DNA of 64,000 bases from Camellia lanceoleosa. Lineage: Eukaryota; Streptophyta; Magnoliopsida; Ericales; Theaceae. Below, one piece after another: positions 10,302-63,574 of this stretch. Position numbers and translations under genes: made by a program. The notes under the pieces are model-generated. The model searched no databases. It was not told the DNA's origin and saw only the letters and a program-made list of their open reading frames with translations. The stretch is from NCBI GenBank assembly GCA_025200525.1, contig CM045770.1:83323647-83387646 (forward strand), given 5' to 3'. Position 1 is the stretch's first letter; every line of letters begins with the position of its first letter.

Positions 10302-12062
10302 GTGGTGTTAGAAGTCAATCATAATGACTTACAAGACCAAGATTGGAGGCATCCAATAATGCAGTACCTAACTAGCCTATCTTCGAAAGCCAGCAGAAAG
10401 ATCAAATTACAATCTATGCAATACATAGTGTATGGTAATGCTATTTACAAAAGTGGAGCAGATTGGTTGTTATTGGAATGTCTAGGGCCAAAGGAGGCAT
10501 TGACGGCCGTGGCTGAAGTTCATGAAGGTATCTGTGGTGCTCATCAGCCTGGTGTGAAGATGAGATGCCTACTTCAAAGACATTCCTACTATTAGCTAAC
10601 TATCCTTAAAGATTATATAGAGTATGCTAGAGGTTTCCAGGCATGCCAAAAGCATGGCACGATAAGACATGTACCAATAACTGATTTACATGCAGTTGTG
10701 AAGCTTTGGCCATTTAGAGGATAGGCTATGGATATGATAGGGAAAATACATCCACCCTCTTCGAAGTATCATTGTTTCATCTTATTGGCCACAGACTACT
10801 TTACTAAGTGGATCGAAGCTAAACCATATAAGGCTATAGACCAAACTAAAGTTATTGGATTTATTGGGGGTGTTTGGTGGGGCTTTTTTTAGCTAACTTA
10901 TGGCTTCTAGCTTTTAAAAAGTTATTTTGGACTGTTTGGTTAAACTTATTTCAAACAGCTTATGATTCTAACAACTTATTTTAAGTTAAAAAAGCTGATT
11001 CTGAGAAGCTGTTCACCTCTTACTTTTGATTATCAGCTTCTGCTGTGGACATGTTGATTCACGGTTATACTCTTAGATTTTTTTATTTTTTATTTTTTTA
11101 AAAATAGAAAAAGACCCAAATGGATTATAGAATATTATTATTATTTTTTATGAGAAATGTAGACAAATAGTGAATAATAAAAAATAAAAGTTAATTGAAA
11201 AAAGCTACTTCACAGCTTATTTAACAAACACTACTCAACAACTTAAATCTATAATCCAACAGTTACACCAAACAGATTAACAGTTTATGATTAAAGTCAT
11301 AATCTATAATCTGTTAAGCTATAATCTATAATCTGTTCTAACAGCTACACTAAACAGGACCATTAAAGATCTAATTCACAGGTTTGGCATCCCATAGACC
11401 ATAACTGTGGATAATAGGACTGTATTTGATGGGAATATGGTAAAGTCTTTTGTGGCAGAGTTTGGAATTAACCTTGTTAATTCTACTCCTATTATGCACA
11501 AGCAAATGGTCAGGCAGAATTATCAAATAAGTCTTTGAAAAAAAGAATACAGGGAGTTGTGGAAGACAATCATAGGGATTGACATAACTTACTGTTGAAT
11601 GTATTATGGGCTTATAGGACTTCTCCAAAATCAAGTATAAGAAGTGTTACCTGTAGAAATTAACATCATGTCCTTGAGGGTGAAATGCCAAAATCAATTA
11701 GTTTCTGAGTAGTACCATCAGAGCATGTTCTTGGAATTAGAAAATGTGGATGAAGCTAGAATTTTGGCATTAAATAGCATTCTTTTTCAAAAAAAAGAAA
11801 GCAGCCAAAAACTATAATAAGAAAGTCAAGCACATTAGCTTTGATGAAGGTGATTTGGTATGAAAGACAATATTTTCAATAGGAATTAAAAGCTATAAGT
11901 TTGGCAAATGATCACCCAATTGGAAAAGACCATATCAAGTTCATAGAGTCTTGCCTTAGGAAGCATACCATATGAGAAATTTGAATATGTATGTACACCC
12001 TAAGAAAATTAATGGCAGGTACTTGAAGCCTTATTATCCAACTGTATAGGAAACACAAGAAG
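10302..12062 (+). pseudogene. Tat integrase (broken, interrupted by a MITE)
   Basis: The zinc-binding N-terminal part is at 10380-10660 (VHEGICGAHQPGVKMRCLLQ, then ARGFQACQKHG). The catalytic core begins ATDYFTKWIEAKPYKAIDQT at about 10788. It is cut at 10865 by a 496-bp MITE and resumes at 11365 with IKDLIHRFGIP, then TVDNRTVFDGN. After that, the region of the catalytic Glu is frameshifted. C-terminal segments (SLRVKCQNQLV, MFLELENVDEARILALNSIL) are readable to about 11790. The better-preserved counterpart is on the minus strand at 62509-63574. Convergent with the antisense gene, whose end lies only about 130 bp away. Confidence 0.88.
10866..11361. mobile_element. MITE inserted in integrase, 3-bp target duplication ATT
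   Basis: The left end is GGGGGTGTTTGGTGGGGC. The right end, reverse-complemented, is GGTCCTGTTTAGTGTAGC. The element is flanked by ATT at 10863-10865 and 11362-11364. The right-arm copy (near 63233-63245, reverse strand) has the uninterrupted site (GGATTTATTAAAGATC), which proves the boundaries. 496 bp, non-coding, AT-rich. The termini and 3-bp target site suggest a Harbinger-like non-autonomous element. The superfamily is inferred. Confidence 0.88.
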
Positions 12063-12189
12063 TATAGTAAATGCTAAACAAAAGAAGTATGAAAACACTC
12101 AAATAATAAATAAAGAATTCATTTCATAAGGAGTTAAGTATATGCAGCCATAGATTGGCCCAAAAGTCAGTACAATGTTTCAGTTATTC

Positions 12190-15100
12190 TCTTACAATTG
12201 ATTCTCTACTCTTAAGGGATGGGAACAACTGGATGGCTGTAGTCATCTGCTGCCTTCGATCAACCAGTCCTTGGTTGGTGATTTGTAGCTTGGTGGCAGT
12301 TCAATCCAAAACTAGGTTAATTGTTGATAACTCTTCCTCTAGTTGAGCTTTCTTCTCCAAAAGTTGGGCTCGAAATTGGGAGACAGAGGAATGTTGTTCT
12401 TTCAATTCAGATACTTCAGCATGTATATGGGAAACAAATTCCTGGTCTCTCAACAATTTCTTCTATGCAGCTTTGGCAACATGGCAGAGGTTGACATAAA
12501 AGTCAATAGTAGCCGCTGCCTGAGACAAATGACTTGAAATGGCCACGTTGGATTGCTCAATGGCCTTACAGCACTGGAAGAAACCATTCTTGATAATAGG
12601 TCTTTGCAAGGCTTTAAATGGGATTCTCGAGAACAATGTCAGCAACTCCAAACAGATGCCCAAATCCAGTGAAGGTGAGAAAGTCCTACTAATGGTTGAA
12701 GAGCTCTCAAAAATTTCCAAGAAAGAATCAGCCAGAACCAATGGCTCAGTTTCATTACTGATTGTTGGAATGATAGAAAGCATGTCAAAAAGGCTAGCTA
12801 GTCTAGCTTCGAAAATGTTCATCTCTTTTATTGACATTGGTGGTGCAAAAAGGGCTCCAGTGGTCAGAAGAGATGACTGCATAGGGATAGGAGAGGAAGA
12901 TGAAGTGTCCCTAGCAGTTTCCATAGTCCTGGCCACCAGTAGGTCAAGAGAAGAAGGGTTGGAGCTAGATAATGATGGTGGACAAAGAATTGGTGAGCTA
13001 TCAGTATCTTTTCTGAGGGAATCAGCTATTACTGGAGATGAAGTAATAACTGGGATCTCCTCAGGAGGGGAAAGAGCAGCAAAGATTGCAGGGAGAATAA
13101 ATTGGGCTAAGTTAAAGGTTAGAAGAGGAAGGTATAGAGTTAAGCCAAAGGATAAAGAGATAGGAATGCTTTGCCTCAAAAGATGTATGAAAAATGTAGA
13201 ACCAGGATGTAGGAGTATTGCCTGAATGGGCTTTACACTTAGAGGCACTTTAGTGTCACTCTTCTTTTTCTTTTTTGAGGATGCTTCTAATTGTCTTTCA
13301 ACTTCAGTTGAAACTAAAGAAGTCCTTATTGAAGGAGAAGGTAAAGCAGTTGTTGCTGCAAAAGAAGAAATATGAAGCAATGTTAAGTTTCAGTGTTGAA
13401 AACTTGAGAAAGGAAACTAGAGACACAAAAGGGAATTACTAGTTTCAGAAGTGGTAGCAATGGTTTGGGAACTGCGAAGGGTATAATGTTCAACAGTTTG
13501 TTGCCTCCTTACAGTTTCTCTTTGGAGTGCATTAGCAGCAGTAGCTTTATCCCTAAGTATTTGTTGTTGTCTCCTCTTCTCATCCCTCTGGAACACAATA
13601 ATCTCTTTGAAGTGTTCCACTTCCACTGCTTTAGCAGATGCTTCATGAACGGGATCCCCAGTGAAATCAGAGAGAGAGACCGTTATTTTCTTATTTTTTT
13701 TTAATGGTGTCTCATGCTCTTTCTTTGTTTCCTCTTCTCCCATGTGAGCCTCAGGTACCTCCTATTCAGGATCAAACAAGAGCGTTCTTTTTTTTTTTTT
13801 TTTTGCTACTTGCTCTTGAGGAGATTTAAAGCTTGAACTTTTTTAGAAGAGTCTCCCTGTGAGGTATCTATACCACCTACGCCAAAGAATGAACTATAAG
13901 TAAACAAAAATTTTTTTAAAAAAGCATTATAAAGAAAGAGAAAAGAAAAGAAGCAACAGTGCATACCTTTCTTCGAAACAGCTTGAGTGACTCTAGGAAG
14001 AGGTGAGGCAGCAGAAGCAGCCTTTGTGGTAGCAGGGGTAAAAGCTGGGGCAGCATGAGCAGTAGAGGAAGTAACAACGCCAGGCCCTTTAGACTTGGCT
14101 TGAGGCACATCTAGTATCACTAATAGATCTTGAGGAGAAATGGCCAAATACACCTCCATATTGGCCATCTATCAATTCTGGTTCCTTTTCAGTGTATTGT
14201 TTTGGGAAATGAAGAGTAGGTATTCAAAATCAATCAAGTTTTGGATAAACTTGGAGGTTAGCTCTTCTAATCTAGATCGGGGAACTTTCAGTTCTTTATT
14301 CATAAGGTTTGAGTTGGATTCACTGCAGAGAGGGATAGGGATCCCTTGAAAGAGTCCAAATTGCTTAGCAAATTGGGCAGGACAATAGAGCTCAGAGATA
14401 CACTTATAAGATCTGGAGTTCATGGTGCCAATGAATAGCTCATTTGGGATCAAAATAGAAGCCCAGATACTTTTGTGCTGAGGCCTGGAACAGGACTTAT
14501 CGTTCAAAAAGGTCCTCAACTAAGCTGGGCCAATATTGGCTTCGAAGGGGCAAAAGAATGTGTGAAAAGAAGGAGAAGTTGAAAGTTGGTGAAAGAAAGA
14601 AAAATAGAAGGCAAAGTTGGAAGGATAAAGAGAGACATTGGATGACTTCATGCCATAAGTGGTAAGGTTTGGTATTAAAAACTTTAGACACTTAGAACGC
14701 AAATCAGTGAAGTATGCAAAAAGCCAAAGTTGGAGTATCCAAAATGGACCTCCTTAATTGGCATCCATGGGTTTTTTACAAAAGAGTGAACAAGCTCTGT
14801 AGACATAGCCCAAAATATATGGAGTTAAGGCCACTTGTTTATACAAAACAAAGGCTTTGGCGAGAGGGGCAAACTCAGGCATAATCCTCTGAGAAGAAGT
14901 ACAGAAGAGGAATTTGCAAAGCCAATACAATAAAAAGGAAAAGAATTCCCTATCAGTCATAGGGCCTTTTTTTTTGTTCTCAGTTTTGACAAAGTCACTA
15001 TAGGATGAGTTCAGAGGGGGAAGAGATAAAGGGATGCTAAGGTCAGGATAGTCTAGACCAAAGAGAGTGCCAATAGGAGATAACCCTAACAGATGGCAGA

Positions 15101-15613
15101 TGTCAAGGATAGTAGGAGCCATCATACCACATCTAAATTGGAAGAAATTGAAAGCAGAATTCCAAAACAAAGAGCAGCAGGTATTAAAAATGAGTCTTTC
15201 GAAATGGTGAACCTGGATAGTTGAAGGGCATCAAAGAGGCAAAGTTCTTGGAGATCCAGTGTTCTAGCAGGGATGACCCGATCATACCATTCCTCCTATT
15301 TTGGTCTTACTGTGGGCCAGCAGCGATGGGCTCGGTTCACTCTCCAGCTTCCCCAATCAAGACCGCCTTCATAAAGGAGACAATGGTCCTCCAAACGTGG
15401 GTATAGAACTGGAAGCTGAGTAAGGACCTCTTTGAAAATAGGCCCAAGCACATATTCCTGTTGTTCATGGCGACGGCAAATGAAAATACACCTATCAATA
15501 GCACTTTTCTCACCAGCTTTATATTTCTCACACTCTTTAACAATGTTCCTTTTTAAGGCTGCGGATGGACTCACACACTTCACGACTGGTATCTTCGAAG
15601 AGGAAGAAGCCAT
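12190..15613 (-). pseudogene. antisense gene 2 of Tat element: plant-mobile-domain-like protein with coiled-coil tail
   Basis: Transcribed opposite to pol, starting MASSSSKIPVVK at 15613. The N-terminal part contains FQFRCGMMAPTILDICHLLG, SFLLYWLCKFLFCTSSQ, VALTPYILGYVYRACSLF and NMEVYLAISPQDLLV, in the style of the plant mobile domain found in MULE and gypsy elements. Then comes a Lys/Glu-rich region (FTGDPVHEASAKAVEVEH, ETVRRQQTVEHYT), and then a long open stretch at 12463-13380 ending in an Ala/Gln/Glu-rich coiled coil (ELKEQHSSVSQFRAQLLEKK). An 84-bp intron at 13356-13439 (GTAATT...TTTTGCAG on the minus strand) joins TSET to TTTTALPSPS in frame. Stops and frameshifts elsewhere make this copy non-functional. 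Antisense genes at this place are known in Tat elements; the exact role is unknown. Confidence 0.75.
13356..13439 (-). other. intron in antisense gene 2 (left copy)
   Basis: 84 bp with a GTAATT donor and a pyrimidine-rich TTTTGCAG acceptor on the minus strand. Read unspliced, the frame stops after NSLLCL; spliced, it continues in frame. The right copy (58770-58853) has the same length, the same sites and the same in-frame result. Confidence 0.7.
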
Positions 15614-16524
15614 TGACAGAAGTTTTCAAAAGACGAAGTTGAGAAAGAGGGTAAAGGAGAGGAGAAGTCAATAGATATAAAGGGTTTCTGTGTTGGGCGA
15701 GCAAGTAAATTAAAAGTACGAAAGGAAAGGGTTTTTAAATCTTTTTGGTTGAAAATTGCCCAATCATTTTAAATGGGTAGAATTCATAAAGAAGTACTGA
15801 AGGTACGGATGCAAAGAGTTTCTCTCAATAGTGATAATTTGGGAGGGAAACGTATCTTAAACACTTATATTGGCTTCGAAATCAAATATTTGGCTTCGAA
15901 GCCCAGCTTTGGCTCCAAAGTCAGGTGACAAACATCCAGCTAGGACTTCGAAAGCAAGAAGTTGACTTCGAAACACATTTCATGCCTAAGAGTACAAGAA
16001 TCCTTAGGTGTTTGTTTACTTCAAGGGGATTGAAGACTTGCTTTTAGGTTTCTTATTGAAAGTAAAATCCTTCGAAGTAAAATTTGAAATACTCTGCAGC
16101 TATAATTTGTTTATTCTAGACTTCGAAGTGGCAAAAAACCAATATTTGGTTAAGCAGTAAAAAACACAAAGGGACTCATTCTTTTAGAATAAAATAGTGC
16201 AATTCCTAAGAGAAGTTTCCATACTTCGAAAAACGTAGACTGTTTTTTCGAAACAAAAATAGTTAATTCGAAACTGTTGATTGTGTTAGCCATATGATTG
16301 GAATGAGAAGACCTAAGGCAAAGATTGTCAATTACATGCCATATGTTGGGGAAATTCAAATTAGGTTTCCAGTATTCCATTGGAAATGTTCAAATTAGAT
16401 TTCAAATGACAAAATTGGTAAATTCGAAGCTCTGATTTTGTTTGCTTTGGGCGAATAGAATAAAATCAGACCATGCTGAATAAAGAAAGGAAAACTTAGC
16501 TTTATTAATATGAAAGGAATTACA
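15614..16524. other. spacer between the antisense genes, TTCGAA cluster
   Basis: The region between the two antisense genes is non-coding. It holds about ten copies of the palindrome TTCGAA between 15876 and 16425, for example GCTTCGAAATC, GCTTCGAAGCC and ACTTCGAAAGC. It is the natural place for the promoter of antisense gene 2 (reading left) and the 3' end of antisense gene 1. No TATA box is obvious. A binding-site role for TTCGAA is a guess. Confidence 0.5.
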
Positions 16525-17827
16525 TTAGAAAGCCTTCTTGGCTACAAATTCAGTTTCATAAAAATAAGGAATAGAAAAAATAACAAGGTCATGGAATTTG
16601 TTCCAATAGTGGTCAATTAATTAATGTTCCTTTTCATTCTGTCCTCTATCCTCTCCAAGCTAAGTTGCAGTAGCTGATATGCTCTTATTTGATGAAAAAG
16701 TTGTTCAGCTTTTATTTCGAACTCTGTTTCCTTCAATCCTTGTTCCATCTCATCAATATCTAAATCATCCCAGTATGTAGAATATTTATTCTTGAAGTCA
16801 TTATATTCGTCAATAAGGTTCTCTGCTTCATACTGAGTGTGAATTCAATGGGCTGAGACTTTGTCCAAAGATTGAGTGGAAGCCAAAGAAGTTTGGTACC
16901 AATGAAGAAGCAATGGGAGTTGATCCAAAAACATCTGAAGTTCTGCTTGAGCAATTGGGTTGAAGATATGACCTCGAGTCATAATGTCACAAGCCCATCG
17001 AAAGTTTTTAAGAGGAATATCACCTCCAAGAACATTGAAGGCTAAATGAGAAAAAGCTGCAAGCAAAAGTTGAGCTTGATATCGCTTAAATATAGTGGGG
17101 GGAGCTAGAGGTTGGCAGGAAGGAAGAAACTTATTCTCAAAGAGAGTAAGTCTCAGTTCTTCCATGCAATGAGGGTTTTGAGGAAGTGGAGGCACAAGAG
17201 GATCCATTCCAAAGGAAAAAGGGAACTGGGGGTTATTTACATATTCAAGCTAGTCAGTAGAGCAAAATTTTGCCTTCTGGGCTAAGAATGACGAGTTGTA
17301 TCCTCGTGCTTCCTCTGGACGAGGAGTGGCTCGCACTATCTTCGTAAGTGTGGAAGATGTGTACCATGCTATAAGTAAGTTGTCTTCCAAACTGCGCCGA
17401 AAATCGATGGATACATAAGGGTAGACCACCGAGCTCTGGGCAAAAGGAAGGAAAGACAGAGGATCAGCGAATTCGACAAATCGATGGTTAATTCACTCTC
17501 TTAGCTTGGATTCCTCAGGTTCCGGCCAGTTTCGCAGCCAGAAGCTTTAGAAGAAAAAGAGGAAGCCACAGCCTCATCCCACGTAAAAGGTTTTGTGGTA
17601 GAAGAAGAGCTTCCAATATCCATTTTTGCAAAGTTTTAAACTAAAAAATTGTGAACAATAGGTTCATGATCCAAAGGTCAATGATTTACAAAAGCTTCTA
17701 TGACTTGAATAAATAGAGATGGATAGGTGTGGCTAATAAATGCATGAAAATTCTTTCGAGGGCGAACATCATTATCTAACAACTCTTTGTATGCTTGATC
17801 TGTGTCAGGAAAGGTTTGTTTGGCCAT
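16525..17827 (-). pseudogene. antisense gene 1 of Tat element (unknown function)
   Basis: It starts MAKQTF at 17827 on the minus strand and ends with a stop at 16525-16527 after FVAKKAF. Conserved pieces shared with the right copy are DQAYKELLDNDV, ISHTYPSLF, MDPLVPPLPQNPHCMEELRL, AFNVLGGDIPLKNFRWACDI and QLPLLLHWYQTSL. The C-terminal part is acidic and helical (LEQGLKEFE-type). I do not recognise a named domain. Several internal stops (for example after VNH and after SAH) disable this copy. It reads away from the 3' LTR, so it may use LTR-internal or nearby antisense promoters (inference). Confidence 0.65.
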
Positions 17828-17998
17828 GCGAATTGTATCAGTCTTTTTAAATGCTCAAATAGTGGGAAATGTTCAAGGTGTATAAAAGAATTTAATGTAG
17901 TCGGTTGCAATTCTAAGAAGATGCAAAGCCAATGCACGTCCTAGGACGTGGGTAAAGTGCTTTGATTCACTAATATCACCAAGTATTGGGTATATTAG

Positions 17999-18010
17999 TG
18001 CGGGGGGTAA
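17999..18010 (+). other. polypurine tract before 3' LTR
   Basis: GTGCGGGGGGTAA sits directly before TGTTGG. Its position and purine run fit the plus-strand primer. The right copy has GTGCGAGGGG followed directly by TTGG, having lost TAATG. Confidence 0.6.
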
Positions 18011-18755
18011 TGTTGGTTGTATGATTTGTATAAGCCAATCACAGTTCAATACGTGACATGAAAAGGGCAATTTGGAGAGTTAATATAAATTGCCAACCAT
18101 AGTCAGACACATGTCAACCCATACTGGTAATAATGGCTCTGCATAGCACTGGAATGATCGAGGTATATAAGGTGATGTGGCCTAATGGTTACTCACAAGA
18201 TTCAAATTCAAAATCAGGAAGGAAGCCTAACTGCAAATATGACGTAATGAGACTGACTATGAGAGAGCATGTTCAACAATTATGGAGGGACATTTCGACA
18301 GTTAAAAACCTATTTCGATAGTTATCATTGAGAAGTATAAATAGCAGAGAAGGCCCTAGAAAAAGGATCCAGACTCATATCAAAAAATCAGTTTTATTTA
18401 CTTTATTTTCCTTTCCAGTTCTTTACATTTCTGTACTTCAAATTCCCGTACTGCACTTCATTCATAGGAGTAGTTTCAAATAGTTTGTTGCTGTGAACCT
18501 CTACGAGGCTGGATCAGATCATTAAAAGTTTTCCATTTTACTTAATGAAATTCTGAAATTATTCTTCACTTGGTTGTTATTTACTGAATTCTCCTAAACA
18601 AGCCACCAATAAAAGTCCTCTTCATTGAGACTGAAAGAACTAAAAAACAATCGTCTGATAATTGGTTGGCAATTAATCTTCTGTAAGGACTGATTAATCC
18701 TTACTGGTACGCTTAAAATTACAATGCTAACCTTCGAAAGCCAAAAAAGCCAACA
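18011..18755 (+). repeat. 3' LTR of Tat element
   Basis: TGTTGGTTGTATG ... AAAGCCAACA, 745 bp, flanked on the right by ACGGT (target site). It matches the 5' LTR at 3081-3823 and, in reverse complement, 53508-54260. It contains TATATAAGG at about 18164-18172, a possible TATA box, and AATAAAA-like words in its 3' part. The inverted terminal TGTTGG/CCAACA is intact. Confidence 0.92.
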
Positions 18756-20956
18756 ACGGTATAGTCCAAAATAGGTTAAAAAGTGGGAAATAACTATTAA
18801 CCCACTTTCTAAAAGAGCCTAAGCCCTAAATGTCTCATACTCATGTGTGTACTTGTGTGTGTCTTATGCCTCAAATAGAGGCGTTCACAATTCAGTTATG
18901 GTCAAAGAGCTTTTAATCTACTATTCGTCCGCTGGATTGGCGGATTGAAAAAAGTCAATCTTCATCTGTCTACTGGATTAAGCAGATTGGCAGATGGATG
19001 CAAATCGACTTAGCGGTTTAAACTTTGATAAATTTTAAACATAATACAATAACTTGTCAATATTTTTTTATTTTTTTTTGATAACAATCAAACTCTTTGA
19101 ACAAAACCAAAAAATTATCAAGTAAATTGTCAAATATCAATAATAAATACATATAAGAAAATTATGCATTATCAAAACTATTTCATTACTTTTTTTTTAT
19201 CCAAAAACTATTTAATTTGATTTTTAAAAAAATGACAAAATTAAATCTTATATTTTTCACACAAAAAATCAAATATCAACACTTGCCATTTGATAAAAAG
19301 GATTTCTAAATTGAAAACACAACAGAATATCTAAACTCTTTTTCAATTGAAAACACAAACAAAATATCTAAATACATTAAAAACACAAAATTTTACAAAT
19401 TTCTAGGGATGCTCGCGATTTGGCAGTTTGGTTGCGGCTAAAGTAACCTCAAATTCGCCATCCGTCCAAAACTAGACGGATTTGAAAAAATCAATCCGCA
19501 ATCGCCCACTCATCATCACGCATCTATCCAAAATGTGGCAGATTGGTTTGGTCAATTTGGGGGATCAGAATATCCGTTACTCACCCATAATCTCAAATGT
19601 TTAGGAGCACAAGTTTTTTATAGGTAAAAACCATGAGATATTTAATCATTACATAGGTCTATTTTGGCGATTGGATTAAAGGTTAATTTTTAAATTTTTT
19701 GATTTTTCTGCACATCTTTTTTTAAAAAAAAATAAAAACAAAAATAAAAAAATAATTACAATAAGAAAATCTTTGCACTCATTTGGCATAATGCTACAGA
19801 GCTAAAATAGTCACAAATAAATAATATAGATTAAAAAGTCAATAAGATAATGTCACATCTAAATTATAATTATTTCATTTTTTTTCTCACAAAAGTAAAA
19901 AAAAAACTCATACCAAACGAGACTTTTTAGTCCTAGACTAAAAAAATTAAAAAGTTAAAAAATTAACCCACATCCCAAACGAACCCCTTGTAGGAGTTGT
20001 TTGGGATGTTCTAAATAAGGCCTCGTTTGGGAACCTTCCCTTTTAGTCAAAAAGTTAAAAAGTTATTAAATTAGCCAAAAAGTCAACAACTCATACCAAA
20101 AAGTCAAAGATTCTCTTCTCTCTACTTTTTGCACATCTTTTTGTAAAAAGTCAAAAAATCATCCCAAACATATTAGTCTTTTTTAGCTCATATTTTAGCC
20201 AAATAGTCAAAAAATTACTAAATTAGCATGTTTCCAAACGAAGCCTAAGTGTATTTTTTGACTTTTTATGAACTATGGATTGGGTTTGAAGTGATGTGGT
20301 AGAGAGGTGATGTGACTTAATTAAGATGATGTAATTTAAATAGAATAGTGACTTTTTGACTTTTTTAGAAGATGCCAAACCTAGCTGAAATGTTTAAAAA
20401 CTAAGAAAATTTTATTATACACACCTGTTGAAAGGGGTATATCGTATATACCATTAATTATGTCAATTTTTTTTAATTATTATGTTATTTTTTTTTAAAT
20501 TTATACTTATGATGATATTTTAATTATGAGTTATGAAAATTTTGACAGATATTTGATTATAATATTTTTTTAATTATCAATAAGAAATTATAAAATTGTA
20601 TTAATTTTTTTAATTATAGAGTGTAATTCTGTCTCAAAGCATGTGTACTATAAGCCTCGTTTAGGAAGCCGGTTAAAAGTTAAAAATCACTTTTTAACTT
20701 ATTTTGAATTATATCTCTTATATTTTTTATATATTTTTTTTAAAAAAATCAAAAAAATAATTTTTAATTATTTTTTCAAAATAGGCCATAATCTTTTGTT
20801 TTAAAAAAATAATTAATAAAAAAGTAATTAACCATTTTTTCAAATTCTTTGAAAAATATTTTTAAAAAATTAGAAACAAATATGGTGAATAATGTTAATA
20901 ACCGGTCAAATAAATTAATAAAATTAAAAATTCCGACAAACAGTACATTCATCAAT

Positions 20957-21102
20957 TCAGCTGAGAGTTCTCTCTGTCTTTTGAGAGAGAAAATACCAGT
21001 TTTTGAGGACACCGCCTTCTCTTTATAGAAATGGAGATATACTTCATACACCTTGAAGGGAAGCACGGCACCGTGCTTTCCAAGCAAAAGATTTGGCGGT
21101 GT
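20957..21102. other. nested inverted repeats (hairpin-forming)
   Basis: The stem GGGAAGCACGG / CCGTGCTTTCC lies at 21058-21082, inside a wider pair ACACCGCC (about 21009) / GGCGGTGT (about 21093). Just upstream is a second stem, GAGAGTTCTCTCTGTC against TTTGAGAGAGAAAA with CAG/CTG ends. The right arm (51430-51585) keeps both structures, with a perfect 9-bp stem GGGAAGCAC/GTGCTTCCC at 51461-51484. The function is unknown. Confidence 0.5.
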
Positions 21103-21654
21103 GCTTTTCGTATAAACAATGATATCTACACGTGCTTCTACTGAATTAGTTTGACATGTATTAAATAAGTTAAAAAAATTAAAAAATTATTATCTTATTT
21201 AATTCACATCATCTTATTTAAATCACATCACCTCTATAACAAATCACATCAAATTCAACCCAAACCTAATCCAAACCCACCAATAAGTCAAAAAGTACAC
21301 TTTTTTAGGACATCCCAAACCAACCCTAAAATTCTGAAAAAAATTGTAAATTAGTGATCTCTTTTCAAAATATTTGTAAATTCAAGAAAATATTCATAAT
21401 TTTAATTATTAAAATTATTACTAATTCATGAAAAATTATATAACATTATAATTATTAATATATATGAACTGTACCACTTATTTGTATTTTTCTTTAAATA
21501 TGTACTGAATTAAATTTTTTCCAAAGTTTTACATGTAGTTGTAGAATTATTAACAGTCACTCATTTTAATAATTTATTTTATGTTATAATATTTTTATTT
21601 TATTATGTTTGTCTATAAAAAAAAATAACAAATATATTTTTAAAATATCGCATT

Positions 21655-24967: not shown

Positions 24968-25219
24968 TTTATTTTCACCTTGATATGTTTTTCATACTTT
25001 CTTTTAATTTGGTTATTGATTCAACTTTCATAGTAATTTCTATTTCAAGTTTGGTTCAACTCTGATTGTTTAAATATAATATCATCATACCAAAAAATAA
25101 AAATTGAACAAATTGAATATGTTCAAAATATATATGTTGAACAAAATAAAAACGTTCATACTTTATATACTGAACAACTTCAATTCATTCAAACTTATTA
25201 TGTTGAACATATATTAAAT

Positions 25220-48705: not shown

Positions 48706-48707
48706 TT

Positions 48708-53000: not shown

Positions 53001-53502
53001 AAAATAAGATTTAATTTTGTCATTTTTTAAAAAATCAAACTAAATAGTTTTTGGATTAAAAAAAAAAAGAGTAATGAAATAGTTTTGATAATGCATAGTT
53101 TTCTTATATGTATTTATTATTGGTATTTGACAATTTACTTGATAATTTTTTTGATTATGTTTAGAGAGTTTGATTGTTATCAAAAAAAAAAAAAAAAAAA
53201 AATGTTGACAAATTATTGTATTATGTTTAAAATTTATCAAAGTTTAACCCGCTAAATCGATTTGCATCCATCATGTCTGCTCAATCCAAAGAGAGCGGAT
53301 GAGGATTGATTTTTTCCAATCCGCCAATCCATGCATTTAATAGCGATTAAAAGTTCTCCGACCATAACTAAACTGTGAACACCCCTATTTGAGGCATAAG
53401 ACACACACAAGTATATACATGAGTGTGAGATATTTAGGGCTCGGGCTCTTTTAGAAAGTGGGTTAATAGTTATTTCCCACTTTTTAACCCATTTTGGATT
53501 AT
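50095..53502. other. MITE-rich flank of the right arm
   Basis: Counterpart of 18756-22572. It holds family A units at about 50445-50680, 50780-51045 (with CCCAA repeats) and 52245-52450, the hairpin region at 51430-51585, and a family B unit at about 52080-52240. No gene is seen. It is about 400 bp shorter than the left flank, so it has lost some sequence or the left has gained some. Confidence 0.7.
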
Positions 53503-53507
53503 ACCAT

Positions 53508-54260
53508 TGTTGGTTTTTTTGGCTTTTGAATGTTAGTATTGTAATTTTAAGCGTGCCAGCAAAGATTAATCAGTCCTTACAGAAGATTAATTACCAACCA
53601 ATTATTAGACGATTGTATTTTAGTTCTTTCAACCTCAATGAAGAGAGCTTTTACTGGTGGTTTGTTTAGGAGAATTTAGTAAATAACAACCAAGTGAAGA
53701 ATAATTTCAAAATGTCATTAAGTAAAATGAAAAACTTACAATGATCTGACCCAGCCTCGTAGAGGTTTACAGTAACAAGCTATTTGAAGCTACTCCTATG
53801 AATGAAGTGCAGTATGGGAATTTGAAGTACAGAAATGTAAAGAACTGTAAAAACTGGGAGGGAAAATAAAGTAAATAAAACTGATTTTTTGATTTGAGTC
53901 AGGATCCTTTTTCTGGGCCATTCTCTGCTATTTATACTTCTCAATAATAACCGTCAAAGTGGGCTTTTAACTATCAAAATGTCCCTCCATGAATGCTGAA
54001 CATGCTCTCTCATAGCCAGTCCCACTACGTCATATTTGCAGTTAGGCTTCCCTCCTGATTTTGAATTTGAACCTTGTGAGTAACCGTTAGGCCACGTCAC
54101 CTTATATCCCTCGATCATTCCAGTGCTATGCAGACTCATTATTACCAATATGGGCTGACACGTGTTTTACTATGGTTGGCAATTTGTATTAACTCCCCAA
54201 ATTGCCCTTTTCATGCTACGTGTTGAATTGTGATTGGCTTATACAAATTATACAGCCAAC
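53508..54260 (-). repeat. 3' LTR of the right Tat copy
   Basis: In the plus direction it starts TGTTGGTTTTTTTGGC and ends ACAGCCAA. On the minus strand the polypurine run GCGAGGGG joins TTGG directly: compared with the left copy, the five bases TAATG, including the LTR's first two bases, are missing. It matches both left LTRs and often agrees with the 5' one where the two left LTRs differ. Confidence 0.88.
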
Positions 54261-54439
54261 CCCTCGCACTAATATACACAATACTTGGTGATATTAGTGG
54301 ATCAAAACACTTTATCCACGTCCTAGGACGTGCATGGGCTTTGCATCTTCTTAGAACTGCAACCGACTGCATTAAATTCTTTTATACACCTTGAACATTT
54401 CCCATTATCTGAGCATTCGAAAAGATAGATATAGTTCGC

Positions 54440-55737
54440 ATGGCCAAACAAACCTTCCTTGACATAGATCAAGCATACAAAGAGTTATTAGATAATGATG
54501 TTCGCTCTCAAAAGAATTTTCATGCATTTATTAGCCACACCTATCTATCTCTATTTACTCAAGTCATGGAAGCTTTTGCAAATCATCAACCTTTGGATCA
54601 TGAACCAATTTTCCACAATTCTTTAGTCCAAGACTTTGCAAAAATGGATATTGGAAGCTCTTCTTCTGCCACAAAATCTTTTGCGTAGGATGAGGCTGCG
54701 GCTTCCTCTTCTTCTTCCAAAGCTTCTGGCTGGGGAAGCTGGCTAGAACCTAAGGAATCCAAGCTAAGAGAGTGAATTAACCATCGATTCGTCGAATTAG
54801 CTGATCCTCTGTCTTTCCCTCATTTTACTTGGAGCTCTGTGGTTTACCCCTATGTATCCATCGATTGCCGACGCAGTTTGGAAGACAACTTACTTATAGC
54901 ATGGTACACATCTTCCACGCCTACGAAGATAGTGCGAGCCACTCCTCGTTTAGAGGAAGCACAAGGATAAAACTTGTCATTCTTAGCCCAGAGTGCAAAA
55001 TTTTGCTCTTCTGACTGGCTTGAATGTGTAAATAAGCCATAGTTCCCTTCTTCCTTTGGAATGGATCCTTCTGCCCCTCCACTTCCTCAAAACCCTCACT
55101 GGATGGAAGAATTGAGACTTACTCTCTTTGAGAATCAATTTCTTCCTTCCTACCAACCTCCAGCTCATTCCACTATAGTTGAGCGATATCAAGCTCAACT
55201 TTTGCTTGCAGTTTTTTCTCACTTACCCTTCAATGTTCTTGGAGGTGATGTTCCTCTTAAGAACTTTCGATGGGCTTGTGACATTATGACTCGAGGTCAT
55301 GTCCTCAACCCCATTAATCAAGCAGAATTTCAGATGTTTTTGGATCAACTCCCACTGCTTCTTCATTGGTACCAAACTTCTTTGGCTACCACTCAATCTG
55401 TGGACAAAATCTCAGCCCATTGAATTTACACTCAGTATGAAGCAGAGAACCTTATCAACGAATATAATGACTTCAAGAATAAAGATTCCATATACTGGGA
55501 TGATTTAGATATGGATGAAATGGAACAAGGATTGAAAGAGTTCGAAATAAAAGTTGAATAACTTTTTCATCAAATGAGAGCATATCAGCTACAACAACTT
55601 AGCTTGGAGAGGATAGAGGACAAACTAAAAAAGGAACATAAATTCATTGACCACTGTTGGAACAAATTCCATGATCTTGTTATTTTTTTTATTCCTTATT
55701 TTTATGAAATTGAATTTGTAGCCAAGAAGGCTTTCTA
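54440..55737 (+). pseudogene. antisense gene 1, right copy (unknown function)
   Basis: It starts MAKQTFLDIDQAYKELL and ends EFVAKKAF plus stop at about 55737, with AATAAA at about 55757. Between them: HFTWSSVVYPYVSIDC, then MDPSAPPLPQNPHWMEELRL at 55061, NVLGGDVPLKNFRWACDIM, FLDQLPLLLHWYQTSL and a helical acidic end (DDLDMDEMEQGLKEFEIK). About 430 codons in total, broken by a few stops (for example after KSFA, SAH and KVE). No domain is recognised. It is better preserved than the left copy. The nearby polyadenylation-like signal in this orientation supports its being a real transcription unit rather than an accidental frame. Confidence 0.68.
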
Positions 55738-56638
55738 ATGTAATTACTTTCATATTAATAAAGCTAAGTTTTCCTTCCTTTATTCGGCATGGTCTGATTT
55801 TATTCTATTCGCCTAAAGCAAACAAAATCAGAGCTTCGAATTTACCAATTTTGTCATTCGAAACCTAATTTGAACATTTCCAATGGAATACTAGAAACCT
55901 AATTTGAATTTCCCCAACATATGGCGTGTAATTGACAATCTTTGCCTTAGGCCTTCTCATTCCAATCATATGGTTAACACAATCAACAATTTTGAATTAA
56001 CTATTTTGTTTTAAAAAATAACGTCAAGTATGGAAACTTCATTTAGGGATTGCACTGTTTTATTCTAAAAGAATGAGTCCTTTTGTGTTCTTTACTGCTT
56101 AACCAAATATTGGTTTTTTGCCACTTCGAAGTCTAGAACAAACAAATTATAGCTGCAGAGTATTTCAAATTTTACTTCGAAGGATTTTATTTTCAACAAG
56201 AAACCTAAAAGCAAGTCTTCAATCCCCTTGAAGTAAACAAACACCTGAGAATTCTTGTACTCTTAGGTATGAAATATGCTTCAAAGTCAACTTCTTGTTT
56301 TTGAAGTCCTAGTTGGATGTTTGTCACTTGGCTTTGGAGCCAAAGTTGGGCTTTGAAGCCAAATATTTGATTTTGAAGCCAATATAAGTGTTTGAGATAC
56401 GTTTCCCTCCCAAATTATCACTATTGAGAGAAACTCTTCGCATCCGTACCTTCAGTACTTCTTTATGAATTCTATCTATTTAAAATGATTGGGCATTTTT
56501 CAGACAGAAAGGTTTAAAAACCCTTTCCTTTCGTGCTTTTAATTTACTTGCCCATCCAACACACAAGCCCTTCATCTCTATTGACTTCTCCTCTCCTTTA
56601 CCTTCTTTCTCAACTTCGTCTTCTGAAAACTTCTGTCA
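55738..56638. other. spacer between the antisense genes, right copy
   Basis: Counterpart of 15614-16524. TTCGAA sites are fewer (about 55832, 55857, 56125, 56176); several others have become TTTGAA or TTCAAA, the expected product of CpG decay. No gene is seen. Confidence 0.5.
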
Positions 56639-58769
56639 ATGGCTTCTTCCTCCTCGAAGATACCAGTCGTGGAGCGTGTGAATCCATCCGTAGCCTTAAA
56701 AATGATCAATGTTGAAGAGTGTGAGAAATACAAAGCTGGTGAGAAAAGTGCTATTGATGGGTGTATTTTCATTCCCTGTCGCCATGAGCAACAAGAATAT
56801 GTTCTTGGCCCTATTTTCAAAGAGGTCCCTACTCAGCTTCCAGCTCTATACCCGCGTTTGGAGGACCGTTGTCTCCTTTATGAAGGCGGTCTTGATTGGG
56901 GAAGCTAGAGAGTAAACTGACCCCATCGCTGCTGGCCCACAGTAAGACCAAAATGGGAGGAATGGTATGATCGGGTCATCCCTGCTAGAACACTGGATCT
57001 CTAGGAACTTTGCCTCTTCGACGCCATTCAACTATCCAAGTTTACCATTTCGGAGGACCCATTTTTAATACCTGCTGCTCTTCATTTTTGGAATTCTGCT
57101 TTTAATTTCTTCCAATTTAGATGTGGTACGATGGCTCCTACTGTCCTTGACATCTGCTATCTGTTAGGGTTATCTCCTATTGGCACTCCCTTTGGTCCAG
57201 ACTACCCTGACCTTAGCATCCCTTTTTTTCTTCCCCCTCTGAACTCATCTTATAGCGACTTTGTCAAAGCTGAGAACAAAAAGGAAGGCCCTGTGACTGA
57301 TAGGGAATTCTTTTCCTTTTTATTGTATTGGCTTTACAAATTCTTCTTCTGCACTTCTTCTCAGAGGATTATGCCTGAGTTTGCCCCTCTTGCTAAAGCC
57401 TTTGTTTTGCATAAACAGGTGACCTTAGCTCCATATGTTTTGGGCTATGTCTACAGAGCTTGTTCCATATTTTGTGAAAAACCTATGGATGCCAATCAAG
57501 GAGGCCCATTTTGGATACTCCAACTTTGACTTTTTGCATACTTCACTGATTTGCATTCTAACTATCTAAAATTTTTAATACCAAACCCTACCACTTATGG
57601 CATGAAGTTAGCCAATGTCTCTCTTTATCCTTCCAACTTTGCCTTCTACTTTTCTTTCTTTCACCAACTCTCAGCTTTCCCTTCTTCTCACACTTTCTTT
57701 TGCCCTATCGAAGCCAATATTGGCCCAGCCTGGTTGAGGACCTTTTTGAACGATAGGTCCTGCTCCAGGCCTTAGCACAAAAGTATGTGGGCTTCTATTT
57801 TGATCCCGAGGGAGCTATTCATTGGCACCATGAACTCCAGAGCTCATAAGTGTATCTTTGAGCCCTATTGCCCTGCCCAATTTGCTAGGCAATTTGGACT
57901 CTCTTAAGGGATCCCTATCCCTCTCTGCAGTCAGTCCAACTCAAATCTTGCGAATAGAGAACTGAAAGTTCCCAGATCCAGATTAGAAGAGGCCACCTCC
58001 AAGTTCAACCAAGACTTGATTGATTTTGAATACTTACCATTCATTCCCCAAAACAACACACTGAAAAGGTACCAGAATTGGTGGATGGCCAATATGGAGG
58101 TGTACTTGGCCATTTCCCCTCAAGATCTACTAGTGGTACTAGATGTGCCTCAAGCCAAGTCTAAAGGGACTGGAGTTGTTACTTCTTCCACTGCTCATGC
58201 TACCCCAACTCTTACCCCTGCTACCAGAAAGTCTGCTCCTACTGCCTTACCTCTTCCTAGAGTCACTCGAGCTCCTTCGAAGAAAGGTATGCACTACTGT
58301 TTCTTTTTTTTTCTCTTTCTTTATGATGCTTTTTTTTTTTTAACTTATAGTTCGGGAGACTCTCCTCAAAGAGTTCAAGCTTTAAATCTCCTTAAGAGCA
58401 AGCAACAATAACAAAGGAAAAGAAAGCTCTTGTTTGATCGTGAAGAGGAGGTACTTGAGGCTCACGTGGGAGAAGAGGAAATAGAGAAAGAGCAGGAGAC
58501 ACCATTAAAAAGAAAGAAGAAAATAACAGTCTCTCTCTCTGATTTCATTGGGGATCTCGTTCATGAAGCATTTGCCAAAGCAATGCAAGTGGAACACTCT
58601 AAAGAGATTATTGTGTTCCAGAGGGCTGAGAAGAGGAGACAATAACAAATGCTTAGGGATGAAGCTACTGCTGCTAATGCACTCCAAAGAGAAACTGTAA
58701 GGAGGCAACAAACTGCTGAACATTATACCCTTCGCAGTTCCCCAACCATTACTACCACTTCTGAAACTA

Positions 58770-58853
58770 GTAATTCCCTTTTGTGTCTCTAGTTTCCTTT
58801 CCCAAGTTTTCGACACTGAAACTTAACATTGTTTCATATTTCTTCTTTTGCAG
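58770..58853 (+). other. intron in antisense gene 2 (right copy)
   Basis: 84 bp, GTAATT donor and CTTCTTTTGCAG acceptor. The unspliced frame ends after SLLCL; the spliced frame runs on as TSETTTTTLSSPSIRTSS. Length and borders equal those of the left copy (13356-13439). Confidence 0.7.
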
Positions 58854-59241
58854 CAACAACTACTCTATCTTCTCCTTCGATAAGGACTTCTTCAGTTTCA
58901 ACTGAAGTTGAAAGACTATTAGAAGCATCCTTAAAAAAGGAAAAAGAAGACTGACACTAAAGTGCCTCTAAGTGTAAAGCCCATTCAGGCAATACTCCCA
59001 TTTCTTGGTTCTACACTTTTCATACCCCTTTTGAGGCAAAACATTTGTATCTCTTTATCATTTGGCTTAACTCCATACCTTTCTCTTTTAACCTTTAACT
59101 CAGCCCAATTTATTCTCTCTGCAATCTTTGCTGCTCCTTCCTATCCTAAGGAGATCCTAGTTATTACTTTATCTCCAGTAATAGCTGATTCCCTCAGAGA
59201 AGATATTGATAGCTCACCAATTCTTTGTCCACCATCACTAT

Positions 59242-61596
59242 TGTCACGACCCAAACCCGGCCCTATAGGTTTAGCATCAGAATCGCCAAGAATCCGAGAT
59301 TACGAAGGCTCAATAACAAGAATACAGCTTAAATGTAGTACGTGGCGGAAGCCAATACAAGAAATAACTAGTGTCCATTGAGTCATGAAAATCAGATGCC
59401 AAAAAACATTTTTCATGCATTCATACAGTACAGTCTATACAATCATATACAATTATTCAGTACGGAGACCTAATCCCTCGATAACAGTACGGTAAAACAG
59501 TAGACAGTCTATACAATAGTACAAAACAGTAAGGAGACCGATAGGGGACACAAAAACACCCCAAGCCATAGCATGGCAACTCGGAACCTCGCAGTGAGGC
59601 ACATAGGTCGCTTGACAAAGCGGGGACCAACCCACGCTCCTAGCTTCGTGCTGGTCCGAGAACCTACATATATATATAACAAGTGAGCTAAAGCCTAGTG
59701 AATAACATAAAAGCGTAAGAGGTTATGAATGAATGTCCTTACAAAGAATGAAATCAGTTCATTAAACAAGATATTCATCTTCGGTATTTCTCAATCACCA
59801 TATGTGGTACACCCATTAGCCTATAAACAAGAGGGTCCAAAGGACCGGTCTTAATGCATCCAACAAGAATGATGGCCATCAACAAGAACAAGATGGTCCC
59901 ACGAGGGAACCGACAGAGCTTTGTAACAAGAATATTGCTAAGGATGTCACAATCTGATTGTAATCTGTGACATACATTCATTCAAGAAACAATATCGATT
60001 GAAACAATTGATTCAAGATTCAAAATATAACCATTTTGAACATATCTTTACACAATCTGTTACTCACAGAGATTGGGCTATAGCAGATAGAGCGCGTCCC
60101 CGAGAGCCAACCCTAAACAGTTAACAAATAGAACACACACTAAGTTCACAATCGGAAAGGATGATAATTAAATCCCTAAATTCCCTGGTGTGGTTCTATG
60201 TCTAAATCCTCATTAAGATGCCTTAAACTAGGCCTAAGAATGCCTAGGATGGAATGAGGATGCAAAGATGCGCACAATCGTTTAGAATTTTCGGTGAAAC
60301 AGGCCTCCGCCGAGCGCGAGTTTTCCCTTTCGGCGGACAAGCAAACAAAGGTCCCCGCTCGAGCGGACATTCTATCGCTCGGGCGGACTGATGGATGGGG
60401 CAAGATGCTGGATGCGCGATTTCTTCACTCCGGCGTGAAACACTCCGCCGGCGGATCAGAAACAAGTCGAAGAAAATGCTGGGAGCATGAATTCCCCGCT
60501 CGAGCGGCACTTCTCCCGCTCGAGCGGACATCAAAAATTTGGAAAACCCAAGTTTGTGTTCCAAGTTCAAAACTCAAGTTTGATGCTCCCAACTTGATCC
60601 TCTTGGGCCCATTTTCTGGAAAACTCTTTCAAACACATAGAATAACATGTTTTAAAGCTCAATTTAAGAAATCAAGGCCCAAGGGTGTTTCAATTAAACT
60701 CAATTTCAAATAGTTTTCAAGAACAACATGCAAACATGACATGCATGAGTTTTTAACCAAATTCAAGGTCCAAGTCTTGCTCTATGAGCTCCAATCTTTG
60801 AAAACAATGTGGAAACATGGACTATGATAAAAACATGGACATGCATGCATAATTCTCCAAGAATTTAACTTCAAATGCACCAAAATGGCCATGCATGCAA
60901 CAATGGAGTTCCAATTCAACATATGAGACCTTAAAACATGACTTAACTCTATAATGAAAACATGGGTCATGCAAGAATTAGCTTAAACACAACATTAAGA
61001 AGGCAAGATCCTTACCTAAGTCTCAATTACAAGGTTTATGAGCTCAATTAGCAACTACCCTTCAATTTCTTCAAGCAATTCTTATGAACACAAGATGAAA
61101 ACAGTCACTCCCTAATCTCTCTCTCTCTATATTCGGTGGTGGACTCAAATGTGCTAAAGAAGTGTTGTATAATGCAAGACCAAGTCTTGTGCAAGGTGTG
61201 GTGTAGTGGCCCACTAGGTGGCAACATGGTAATTTAGCCAAAGTTTGCAATATGACAATATTTAATCTAGTTTAATCATACAGAATCGGTTTTCAGATAA
61301 TTACACTATAAAATCACATTAATTATGATGATTATAAAACATCAGTCAATTTTGGATTTGGCCACCGATAAGGCCTTCAATTTGCAATTTAAACACATGA
61401 ATTCAAACAGATAATCAATCGATCAAACAGATGCAATATACAATTCAATAGATAAACTTATTCAATTTTAGTTTCGATTTCAATCAGTCCATTCAGTACT
61501 TCAGTTAATTCAATTATCAGTCATTATCGGTTCAGTTTAACAGTAACCAGTAGCTAATTCAGTAGTTTATCGGTAATCTGTACGAGGGTTGTTACA
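59242..61596. mobile_element. solo LTR-like insertion, 2355 bp, target site ACTAT
   Basis: It begins TGTCACGACCCAAACCCGG and ends GAGGGTTGTTACA. It is flanked by ACTAT at 59237-59241 and 61597-61601. The left arm has the empty site, which fixes both ends. TG...CA termini and a 5-bp target site fit an LTR, and the start TGTCACGACCC is common in plant gypsy LTRs. No second LTR, primer site or coding domain was found inside, so a large solo LTR is the simplest reading. The interior has a GC-rich patch with three CCGCTCGAGCGG palindromes (60355, 60496, 60516). Short frames inside it are not genes. Confidence 0.82.
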
Positions 61597-62508
61597 ACTA
61601 TCCAGCTCTAGCCCTTCTTCTCTTGACCTACTGGTGGCTAGGACTATGGAAACTGCTAGGGACACTTTATCTTCCTCTCCTATCCCTATGCAGCCATCTC
61701 TTCCTACCACTGGAGCGCTTTCTACACCACCAATGTCAATGAAAGAGATGGACATTTTCAAAGCTAGACTGGCTAGCCTTTTTGACATGTCTTCTATTAT
61801 TCCAACAACCAGTAATGAAACTGAGCCATTGGTTCTGGTTGATTCTCTCTTGGAAATTTTTTAGAGCTCTTCAACCATTAGTAGGGCTTTCTCACCTTCA
61901 CTGGATTTGGGCATCTGTTTGGAGTTATTGACATTGTTCTCGAGGATCCCATTTGAAGCCTTGCAAAGACCTATTATCAAGAATGGTTTCCTCCAGTGCT
62001 GCAAGGCCATTGAGCAATCTAACATGGCTATTTCAAGTCATTTGTCTAAGGCAGTGGCTACTATGGACTTTTATGTCAAAATCTGCCATGTTGCCGAAGC
62101 TGCAGAGGAGAAATTGTTGAGAGACCAGGAATTTGTTTCCCATATACATGCTGAAGTGTCTGAATTGAAAGAACAACATTCCTCTGTCTCCCAATTTCGA
62201 GCCCAACTTTTGGAGAAGAAAGCTCAACTAGAGGAAGAGTTATCAGCAGTTAACCTGGTTTTGGATCGAACTGCTACCAAGCTGCAAATCACCAACCAAG
62301 GACTGGCTGATCAAAGGCAGGAGATGACTATAGCCATCTAGTTGTTCCTATCTCTTAAGAGTAGAGAATCCATTATAAGAGAACAACTGAAATATTGTAC
62401 TTACTTTTGGGCCAATCTATGGCTGCATATACTTAACTCCTTATGAAATGAATTCTTTATTTATTATTTGAGTGTTTTCATGCTTCTCTTGTTTAGCATT
62501 TATTATAC

Positions 62509-63574
62509 TCATTGTGTTTCCCATACAGTTAGATAATAAGGCTTTAAGTACCTACCATTAATTTTCTTAGGGTGTACATACCCATTCAAATTTCTCAAAT
62601 GGTATGCTCCCCAAGGCATGACTCTATGAACTTGATATGGTCCTTCCCAATTAGGTGACCATTTGCCAAACTTATGGCTTTTAATTCCTATTGGAAGTAT
62701 TGTCTTCCATACCAAATCACCTTCATCAAAGCTAATGTGCTTGGCTTTCTTATTGTAGTTTTTGGCTGCTTTATTCTTTTGAAAAAGAATTCTATTTAAT
62801 GCCAAAATTCTAGCTTCATCCACATTTTTTAATTCCAAGAACATGCTCTGATGGTACTCCTCAGGAACTAACTGATTCTGGCATCTCACCCTCAAGGACT
62901 TGATGTTAATTTCTACAGGTAACGCTGCATCATGTCCATATACTAAGACATAAGGAGTAACTCCTGTATTTGATCTTGGAGAAGTCCTATAAGCCCATAA
63001 TACATCCAACAGTAAGTTATGCTAATCCCTAGGATTGTCTTCCACAACTCTTTGTATTCCATTTTTTAAAGACTTATTGGATGATTCTGCCTGACCATTT
63101 GCTTGTGCATAATAGGGGGTAGAATTAACAATGCTAATTCCAAACTCTGCCACAAAAGACTTTACTATCTTTCCATCAAATACAGTCTCATTATCCACAG
63201 TTATGGTCTGTGGAATGCCAAACATGTGAATTAGATCTTTAATAAATCCAATAACTTTAGTTTGGTCTATAGCCTTATATGGTTTAGTTTCGACCCATTT
63301 AGTCAAGTAGTCTGTGGCCACTAAGATGAAACAATGATGCTTCGAAGAGGGTGGATGTATTTTCCCTATTATATCCATAGCCCATCCTTTAAATGGCCAA
63401 GGCTTCACAACTGCATATAAATCAGTTATTGGTACATGTCTTATCATGCCATGCTTTTGGTATGCCTGGCAACCTCTAGCATACTCTATACAATCTTTAA
63501 GGATAGTTGGCCAATAGTAGGAATGTCTTTGAAGCAGCCATCTCATTATCATACCAGGTTGATGAGCAGCATAG
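62509..63574 (-). pseudogene. integrase of the right Tat copy (catalytic core intact)
   Basis: On the minus strand from 63574: HQPGMIMRWLLQRHSYYWPT, ARGCQAYQKHGMIRHVP, then the core VATDYLTKWVETKPYKAIDQ (first Asp), TITVDNETVFDGKIVKSF (second Asp) and YYAQANGQAESSNKSLKNGI (Glu). After a break at about 63015 come LDVLWAYRTSPRSNTGVTPY, AALPVEINIKSLRVRCQNQL, VWKTILPIGIKSHKFGKWSP, GPYQVHRVMPWGAYHLRNL and the end PYYLTVWETQ at 62509. All three catalytic residues and the chromatin-side C-terminus are present. The zinc-binding N-terminus is cut by the LTR at 63575. This copy never had the MITE that splits the left integrase. Confidence 0.88.

What the first reader, a model, noticed from the sequence alone, without database searches (positions are those of the whole stretch)
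10533..63574. Large inverted duplication enclosing a BEL1-like gene and a peptide gene
10533-22572 and 50095-63574 are the same DNA in opposite orientation, separated by about 27.5 kb (22573-50094). Seen directly: integrase, two antisense genes, LTR and 3.4-3.8 kb of ordinary MITE-rich flank all match in order. Arms this long and close can in principle recombine and flip the middle, or pair as hairpin RNA. A developmental regulator in the loop makes the structure worth checking as an inversion-prone locus. The flipping itself is inference.
Basis: partly seen in the sequence, partly recalled or inferred. Interest (0 to 1): 0.78.

Follow-up and report, generated by a model that had tools for sequence, protein, structure and literature searches.

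The report
Old inverted duplication beside plant gene
In a Camellia (tea-relative) chromosome, about 12 kb made of part of a large dead retrotransposon plus its neighbouring DNA exists in two opposite-facing copies on either side of a regulatory gene; the copies have drifted about 8% apart, so this is a real but fairly ordinary relic and not a demonstrated genetic flip switch.

Summary
The inverted duplication is real. 10532-22572 and 63574-50095 match in order over about 11 kb of aligned sequence (894 of 10,975 sites differ, K2P 0.087). The plant is a Camellia. The arms are the 3' half of a 15.7-kb Ty3 element (3081-18755, Tat-type, with antisense plant-mobile-domain ORFs), its 3' LTR, and 3.4-3.8 kb of flank. 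Target-site duplications and LTR distances show that the element inserted first (LTR-LTR 0.162) and was copied later (LTR3-LTR3 0.102). Each arm then gained its own insertions. The outer end 63574 is probably not a duplication end: another LTR-like sequence starts there, so the arm may run off the window. Flipping is unsupported, not excluded: the longest identical run is 96 bp (156 of 1000 shuffles reach that) and the best 500 columns still differ at 5.2%. Genome copy number and assembly correctness could not be tested. In passing: the BEL1-like gene in the loop has an in-frame TAG in exon 1 where tea has Tyr.

The parts
3076..3080 (.). 5' target-site duplication ATGGT of the Ty3 element
   Evidence: read directly; equals the 3' copy in B, one change from the 3' copy in A
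3081..3823 (+). 5' LTR of element A (743 bp)
   Evidence: BLAST pairs with 18011-18753 and 53515-54260; TGTTGG start; end read as TCAATA where the 3' LTR has CCAACA
3824..10531 (+). 5' half of element A internal region (RT, RNase H, second RNase H), outside the visible arm
   Evidence: RVT_1 6.1e-17 at 8575-9060; RT_RNaseH hits below Pfam cut-off and RVT_3 hits, one of two above it; the ORF 7506-7973 had no Pfam hit
10532..22572 (+). arm A of the inverted duplication (12,041 bp)
50095..63574 (-). arm B of the inverted duplication (13,480 bp)
10532..12463 (+). integrase region of element A, broken into frames and split by a later insertion (right limit approximate)
   Evidence: aligned to B 63022-63600, which carries rve 1.2e-08; no Pfam hit in the A pieces scanned
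10866..11361 (.). 496-bp insertion in A only, ATT on both sides, empty site in B
12463..17249 (-). antisense ORFs of element A between integrase and 3' LTR; PMD at 14754-15230 (6e-14) and 14172-14519 (weak, below cut-off)
18011..18755 (+). 3' LTR of element A
18756..18760 (.). 3' target-site duplication ACGGT in A
18756..22572 (.). non-element flank in arm A
20019..20245 (.). 227-bp MITE-like insertion in A only, TAA on both sides, 12-bp terminal inverted repeats matching at 11 of 12 (by eye), empty site in B
21146..21325 (.). 180-bp segment in A only; ends not clean, so insertion in A or loss in B
22573..50094 (.). loop between the arms
31791..40597 (+). BEL1-like homeodomain gene, model of four exons 31791-33140, 37692-38101, 38198-38258, 40109-40597; in-frame TAG at 32292-32294
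   Evidence: exon model with GT..AG ends; the part after the stop has POX 2e-40 and Homeobox_KN 6.6e-20; exon-1 ORF 97% to tea P0001
43773..44027 (-). 84-aa small-protein gene ('peptide gene'), signal-peptide-like start by eye
   Evidence: 100% to C. lanceoleosa LOK49_LG12G01822, 95% over 74% to tea CsSME_00046543
46360..48296 (-). gag-type ORFs of another Ty3 element remnant in the loop
   Evidence: Retrotrans_gag 8.3e-19 in 47547-48296; 46360-47520 assigned by position, no Pfam support
50095..53507 (.). non-element flank in arm B, beginning at the element with the target-site copy ATGGT (53503-53507)
53508..54260 (-). 3' LTR of the element in arm B
55043..62341 (+). antisense ORFs of the element in arm B; PMD at 57005-57529 (5.4e-20)
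59242..61596 (+). 2355-bp solo-LTR-like insertion in B only (TGTCAC...GTTACA), ACTAT on both sides, empty site in A
   Evidence: LTR nature inferred from its ends and the 5-bp duplication
63575..64000 (.). start of another LTR-like sequence (TGTAGACACCCC...) that cuts arm B; runs off the window
   Evidence: no match to A 1-10531 beyond chance (best E 0.67); LTR identity rests on its TG start at the boundary only

Best explanation
An old inverted segmental duplication. A 15.7-kb Tat-type Ty3 retrotransposon inserted once. Later at least the 3' half of that element, its 3' LTR, the target-site sequence and about 3.5 kb of downstream DNA were copied, in reverse orientation, so that the two copies now flank a segment holding the BEL1-like gene and its small-protein neighbour. 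Both copies then decayed independently and took new insertions. Shown: the inverted copies, that they share one insertion junction, the order of events, and independent decay. Inferred: that copying was at DNA level through repair of a chromosome break (template switching, or an inversion with staggered breaks), and that the arms are not now recombining.
For: Collinear inverted match across element and flank at similar divergence, segment K2P 0.072-0.102. LTR5-LTR3 of A 0.162 against LTR3A-LTR3B 0.102; of 125 sites where exactly two of the three LTRs agree, 64 group A3 with B3, 33 A5 with B3, 28 A5 with A3 (P 3e-5 against equal thirds). The five bases after the B LTR, ATGGT, equal those before A's 5' LTR, so B carries the junction of the same insertion. 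Private insertions with an empty site in the partner: ATT, TAA and ACTAT duplications. Longest identical run 96 bp, reached by 156 of 1000 shuffles.
Against: One sequence only was seen, so a false join cannot be excluded. Mismatch among 21 windows of 500 columns is uneven (0.052-0.118, chi-square P 0.009), which leaves room for some old conversion between the arms. Whether the block exists elsewhere in the genome was not tested: the whole-genome tool did not answer in eight tries. The equal-thirds test takes sites as independent.
Confidence: 0.86

Rival explanations
1. A special case of the best explanation: footprint of a 27.5-kb inversion made by staggered breaks. The loop was turned round once and the sequence between the staggered breaks was left in inverted copies at both ends. 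(Its odds overlap with the best explanation.)
For: Inverted copies at both ends of a unique segment are what the model predicts; [quoted passage not shown] The two loop genes have consecutive locus numbers in tea (CsSME_00046543 and CsSME_00046544), so the loop genes probably travel together.
Against: No outgroup orientation could be read; a stagger of 12 kb or more would be long (recalled, not looked up); a plain duplicative insertion explains the same arms.
Confidence: 0.25
2. Inversion-prone locus: the arms recombine and the loop segregates in both orientations.
For: Geometry: long inverted arms 27.5 kb apart. Stretches of 200 columns with 1.5% and 300 with 2.3% mismatch exist.
Against: About 8% divergence, no 500 columns under 5.2% mismatch, longest identical run 96 bp, private insertions in each arm.
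Confidence: 0.07
3. Assembly artefact (chimeric join of two loci).
For: Single sequence, no reads available, repeat-rich genome.
Against: The arms differ at 8% of sites and by private insertions with target-site duplications, so they are not one sequence placed twice.
Confidence: 0.06
4. RNA-level copy: a read-through transcript of the element and its downstream flank was reverse-transcribed and inserted (3' transduction).
For: What is seen of B begins inside the element and continues into the 3' flank.
Against: The 5' end of the B copy is not seen, because another sequence starts at 63575; no poly(A) or new target-site duplication was noticed at the inner end, though neither was searched for beyond reading the junction.
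Confidence: 0.03
5. Two independent insertions of related elements, with flank similarity coming from shared MITEs.
For: The flank holds MITE-like repeats found several times in the window.
Against: Flank matches in order over 3318 sites at the divergence of the element; LTR3A is closer to LTR3B than to its own LTR5; same target-site sequence.
Confidence: 0.02

Closest known systems
Inverted segmental duplications / inverted repeats around a unique segment (e.g. the human inverted repeats of PMC3961182)
   Same: two long opposite-facing copies of DNA around a unique segment with genes
   Different: no long near-identical stretch between the arms, and no other orientation is known here
Tat-clade Ty3 retrotransposons, Ogre and Retand lineages (PMC6317226, PMC11963269; antisense ORFs reviewed in PMC7264820)
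   Same: second RNase H-like region between RNase H and integrase; long region between pol and 3' LTR with antisense ORFs; plant mobile domain, which PMC6317226 reports in 57% of Ogre elements
   Different: no Transposase_28 hit in the pieces scanned, which 61 of 63 Retand clusters of PMC11963269 carry; lineage not settled by a tree; orientation of the Ogre plant-mobile-domain ORF was not read in the paper
Duplications left by staggered-break inversions (PMC6861252)
   Same: copies at both ends of a segment
   Different: ancestral orientation unknown here

Membership tests
Inverted segmental duplication | collinear inverted match extending beyond a single mobile element | tested here: met
   flank 3318 sites at K2P 0.084, element 7657 sites at 0.089
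Inverted segmental duplication | copied after the element was in place, with the same insertion junction | tested here: met
   target-site sequence and LTR distances
Inverted segmental duplication | copied as DNA and not through RNA | tested here: inconclusive
   5' end of the B copy not seen in the window
Inverted segmental duplication | low copy number in the genome | not tested
Inversion-prone repeat pair | long stretch of near-identity between arms | tested here: not met
   best 500 columns 5.2% mismatch; longest identical run 96 bp
Inversion-prone repeat pair | both orientations seen | not testable with these tools
   one sequence only
Ty3 Tat clade (Ogre/Retand) | additional RNase H between RNase H and integrase | tested here: met
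   RVT_3 at 9770-10051 (E 0.0025, below cut-off) and 10055-10291 (E 0.00016, just above cut-off), after RT_RNaseH at 9445-9809 (below cut-off)
Ty3 Ogre lineage | plant mobile domain in an extra ORF (57% of Ogre elements, PMC6317226 passage) | tested here: met
   PMD 6e-14 (A) and 5.4e-20 (B)
Ty3 Ogre lineage | RT-RH-INT tree placement and primer-binding-site type | not tested
   no reference set used
Ty3 Retand lineage | antisense Transposase_28 ORF (61 of 63 clusters, PMC11963269) | tested here: not met
   no PF04195 hit in the 11 antisense pieces scanned from both arms (2, 3, 6); pieces under 110 aa not scanned

The most novel reading that the evidence does not exclude
The arms mark the ends of a single ancestral inversion that turned a BEL1-like regulator and its neighbour round in one Camellia lineage, fixed or polymorphic, possibly connected with the premature stop in the BEL1-like gene.
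Probability: 0.2. Interest if true: 0.5.

Novelty: new member of a known kind. Interest (0 to 1): 0.25.

Why it matters
It is a clean, datable example of an inverted segmental duplication in a repeat-rich tree genome: an element's own target-site duplication and LTR pair give the order of events. With the rate 6.5e-9 used for tea LTRs (PMC7477583, passage) the insertion comes to about 12.5 My and the duplication to about 6.7 My; with twice that rate, half. The rate is borrowed, so these are rough. If an outgroup shows the loop reversed, it would become a structural change at a developmental regulator.

Tried and rejected
Considered and set aside: independent insertions (shared target-site sequence and LTR distances); recent gene conversion over long tracts (run-length test; windows; mild unevenness remains); the outer coordinate as a duplication end. 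Continuation of the arms into the loop was sought and not found. No Rfam match at the gathering score and no tRNA by ARAGORN in the window. Inverted repeats near the inner junctions gave no clear transposon ends.

Literature: a search for Camellia with inverted duplication, segmental duplication, structural variation and inversion (at least 4 of 5 terms) counted 113 papers; the 8 listed hold the word Camellia 0 times each, the other 105 were not seen, so nothing is claimed about novelty in print. Work on sequence divergence and recombination was sought; only the listing was seen and no number is taken from it. Searches were seen as listings, from which the papers cited were chosen; of those, passages were read and one section part. 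PMC7156037 (passages) was read but no claim here rests on it. A search for 12 letters at 63575 returned 8 papers, 5 listed, all on animals by title and abstract start: no information.

The whole-genome copy search of the flank did not complete, so copy number is open.

Full report
Origin. The 84-aa loop gene is 100% identical over 99% of its length to a Camellia lanceoleosa protein (LOK49_LG12G01822) and 95% identical over 74% to tea CsSME_00046543; the BEL1-like exon ORF is 97% identical to tea CsSME_00046544. The two tea genes carry consecutive numbers and lie on a contig of the same length (203,088,184), so the pair is probably adjacent in tea as here. The window is therefore Camellia, closest to C. 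lanceoleosa on this little evidence.

Observation. Self-comparison gives five collinear inverted blocks from 10532/63574 to 22572/50095. Summed over the seven segments, 894 of 10,975 sites differ (679 transitions, 215 transversions; K2P 0.087); a second alignment by block gives 893 of 10,957 with 53 gap events. Segment distances are 0.080, 0.080, 0.090, 0.102 (LTR), 0.097, 0.084 and 0.072. A reversed decoy of the window gives at most 197 bits against 9588.

What the arms are. Element A runs from 3081 to 18755 (15,675 bp, including a later 496-bp insert). It starts TGTTGG, its 3' LTR ends CCAACA, and it is flanked by ATGGT (3076-3080) and ACGGT (18756-18760). Domain order is RT (8575-9060), RNase H (9445-9809), an RVT_3-type second RNase H (9770-10291), integrase (identified in B), then antisense ORFs with a plant mobile domain. 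The RT_RNaseH hits and one of two RVT_3 hits are below the Pfam cut-off; the frames are broken. PMC6317226 (passages) places a second RNase H between RNase H and integrase in Ogre and Retand elements and reports the plant mobile domain in 57% of Ogre elements; PMC11963269 (passages; part 1 of section 11) reports Transposase_28 in all but two of 63 Retand clusters, and it was not found in the 11 pieces scanned here. [quoted passage not shown] An Ogre-type element is the likelier reading; no tree was made. The antisense protein query from arm B has 17 database relatives among 24 candidates, three of them named tea proteins on contigs of three different lengths, as expected of a dispersed family.

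Order of events. LTR5 and LTR3 of element A differ by 0.162, LTR3 of A and LTR3 of B by 0.102, LTR5 of A and LTR3 of B by 0.152. Of 125 sites where exactly two of three agree, 64 join A3 and B3 (P 3e-5 against equal thirds). Changes private to A3 and B3 are about equal (33 and 28). The bases following the B LTR are ATGGT, the same as before the A 5' LTR. So the element inserted once and its 3' junction was copied. With 6.5e-9 per site per year (PMC7477583, passage) this is about 12.5 and 6.7 My; with twice the rate, half.

Independent life of the arms. A alone carries 10866-11361 (ATT duplication), 20019-20245 (TAA duplication, MITE-like) and 21146-21325 (ends unclear); B alone carries 59242-61596 (2355 bp, ACTAT duplication, LTR-like ends). 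At B 63575 a sequence beginning TGTAGACACCCC cuts the arm; its best match in A's upstream 10.5 kb has E 0.67. It is probably another LTR element, so the duplication may extend past the window. The inner ends show no collinear continuation.

Can it flip? The longest identical run is 96 bp; shuffles have a median of 79 and 156 of 1000 reach 96. The most similar windows within blocks differ by 1.0% (100 columns), 1.5% (200), 2.3% (300), 5.2% (500) and 6.2% (1000). Mismatch is mildly uneven along the arms (P 0.009), so some old conversion is possible. A human case with 94% average identity was assigned by its authors most likely to a 782-bp stretch of 99.9% identity (PMC3961182, passages); none was found here. 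Flipping is unsupported, not excluded.

Loop genes. The BEL1-like gene is modelled with four exons and GT..AG introns. An in-frame TAG at 32292-32294 stands where tea has Tyr. An ATG starts at 32301, two codons further on, and the 599 residues from there hold a full-length POX match (2e-40) and a full-length Homeobox_KN match (6.6e-20), so a shortened protein is conceivable; or the allele is broken, or the base is an error. The tea entry (456 aa) ends by reading into the first intron, so it covers exon 1 only.

Verdict. A genuine, old inverted segmental duplication. Anatomy and order of events are well supported; DNA-level copying by break repair is inferred; the inversion-prone and hairpin readings are unsupported. 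Interest is modest unless comparison with relatives shows the loop reversed.

Noticed in passing
32292-32294: In-frame TAG in exon 1 of the BEL1-like gene where the tea protein has Tyr; possibly a broken or shortened allele, or a sequence error.
   Followed up: partly
39123-39800 and 7-332: A low-complexity CCACC-type array sits in the last intron of the BEL1-like gene; window 7-332 matches 39614-39976 at 76%.
   Followed up: no
46360-48710: Remnant of another Ty3 element in the loop: gag-type ORFs in minus orientation and, read by eye, a primer-site-like motif near 48690 (name of the motif recalled). Its LTR was not delimited.
   Followed up: no
41676-41897: Short minus-strand frame that by eye resembles an RNase H-type end of a retroelement, between the BEL1-like gene and the small-protein gene; not searched.
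   Followed up: no
35139-35439 and 35553-35702: Two-copy tandem repeats (147 and 75 bp, 92 and 94% matches) in the first intron of the BEL1-like gene model.
   Followed up: no
43773-44027: 84-aa glycine-rich small protein with named relatives in Camellia, Rhododendron and Durio; weak GRP match below the Pfam cut-off.
   Followed up: partly
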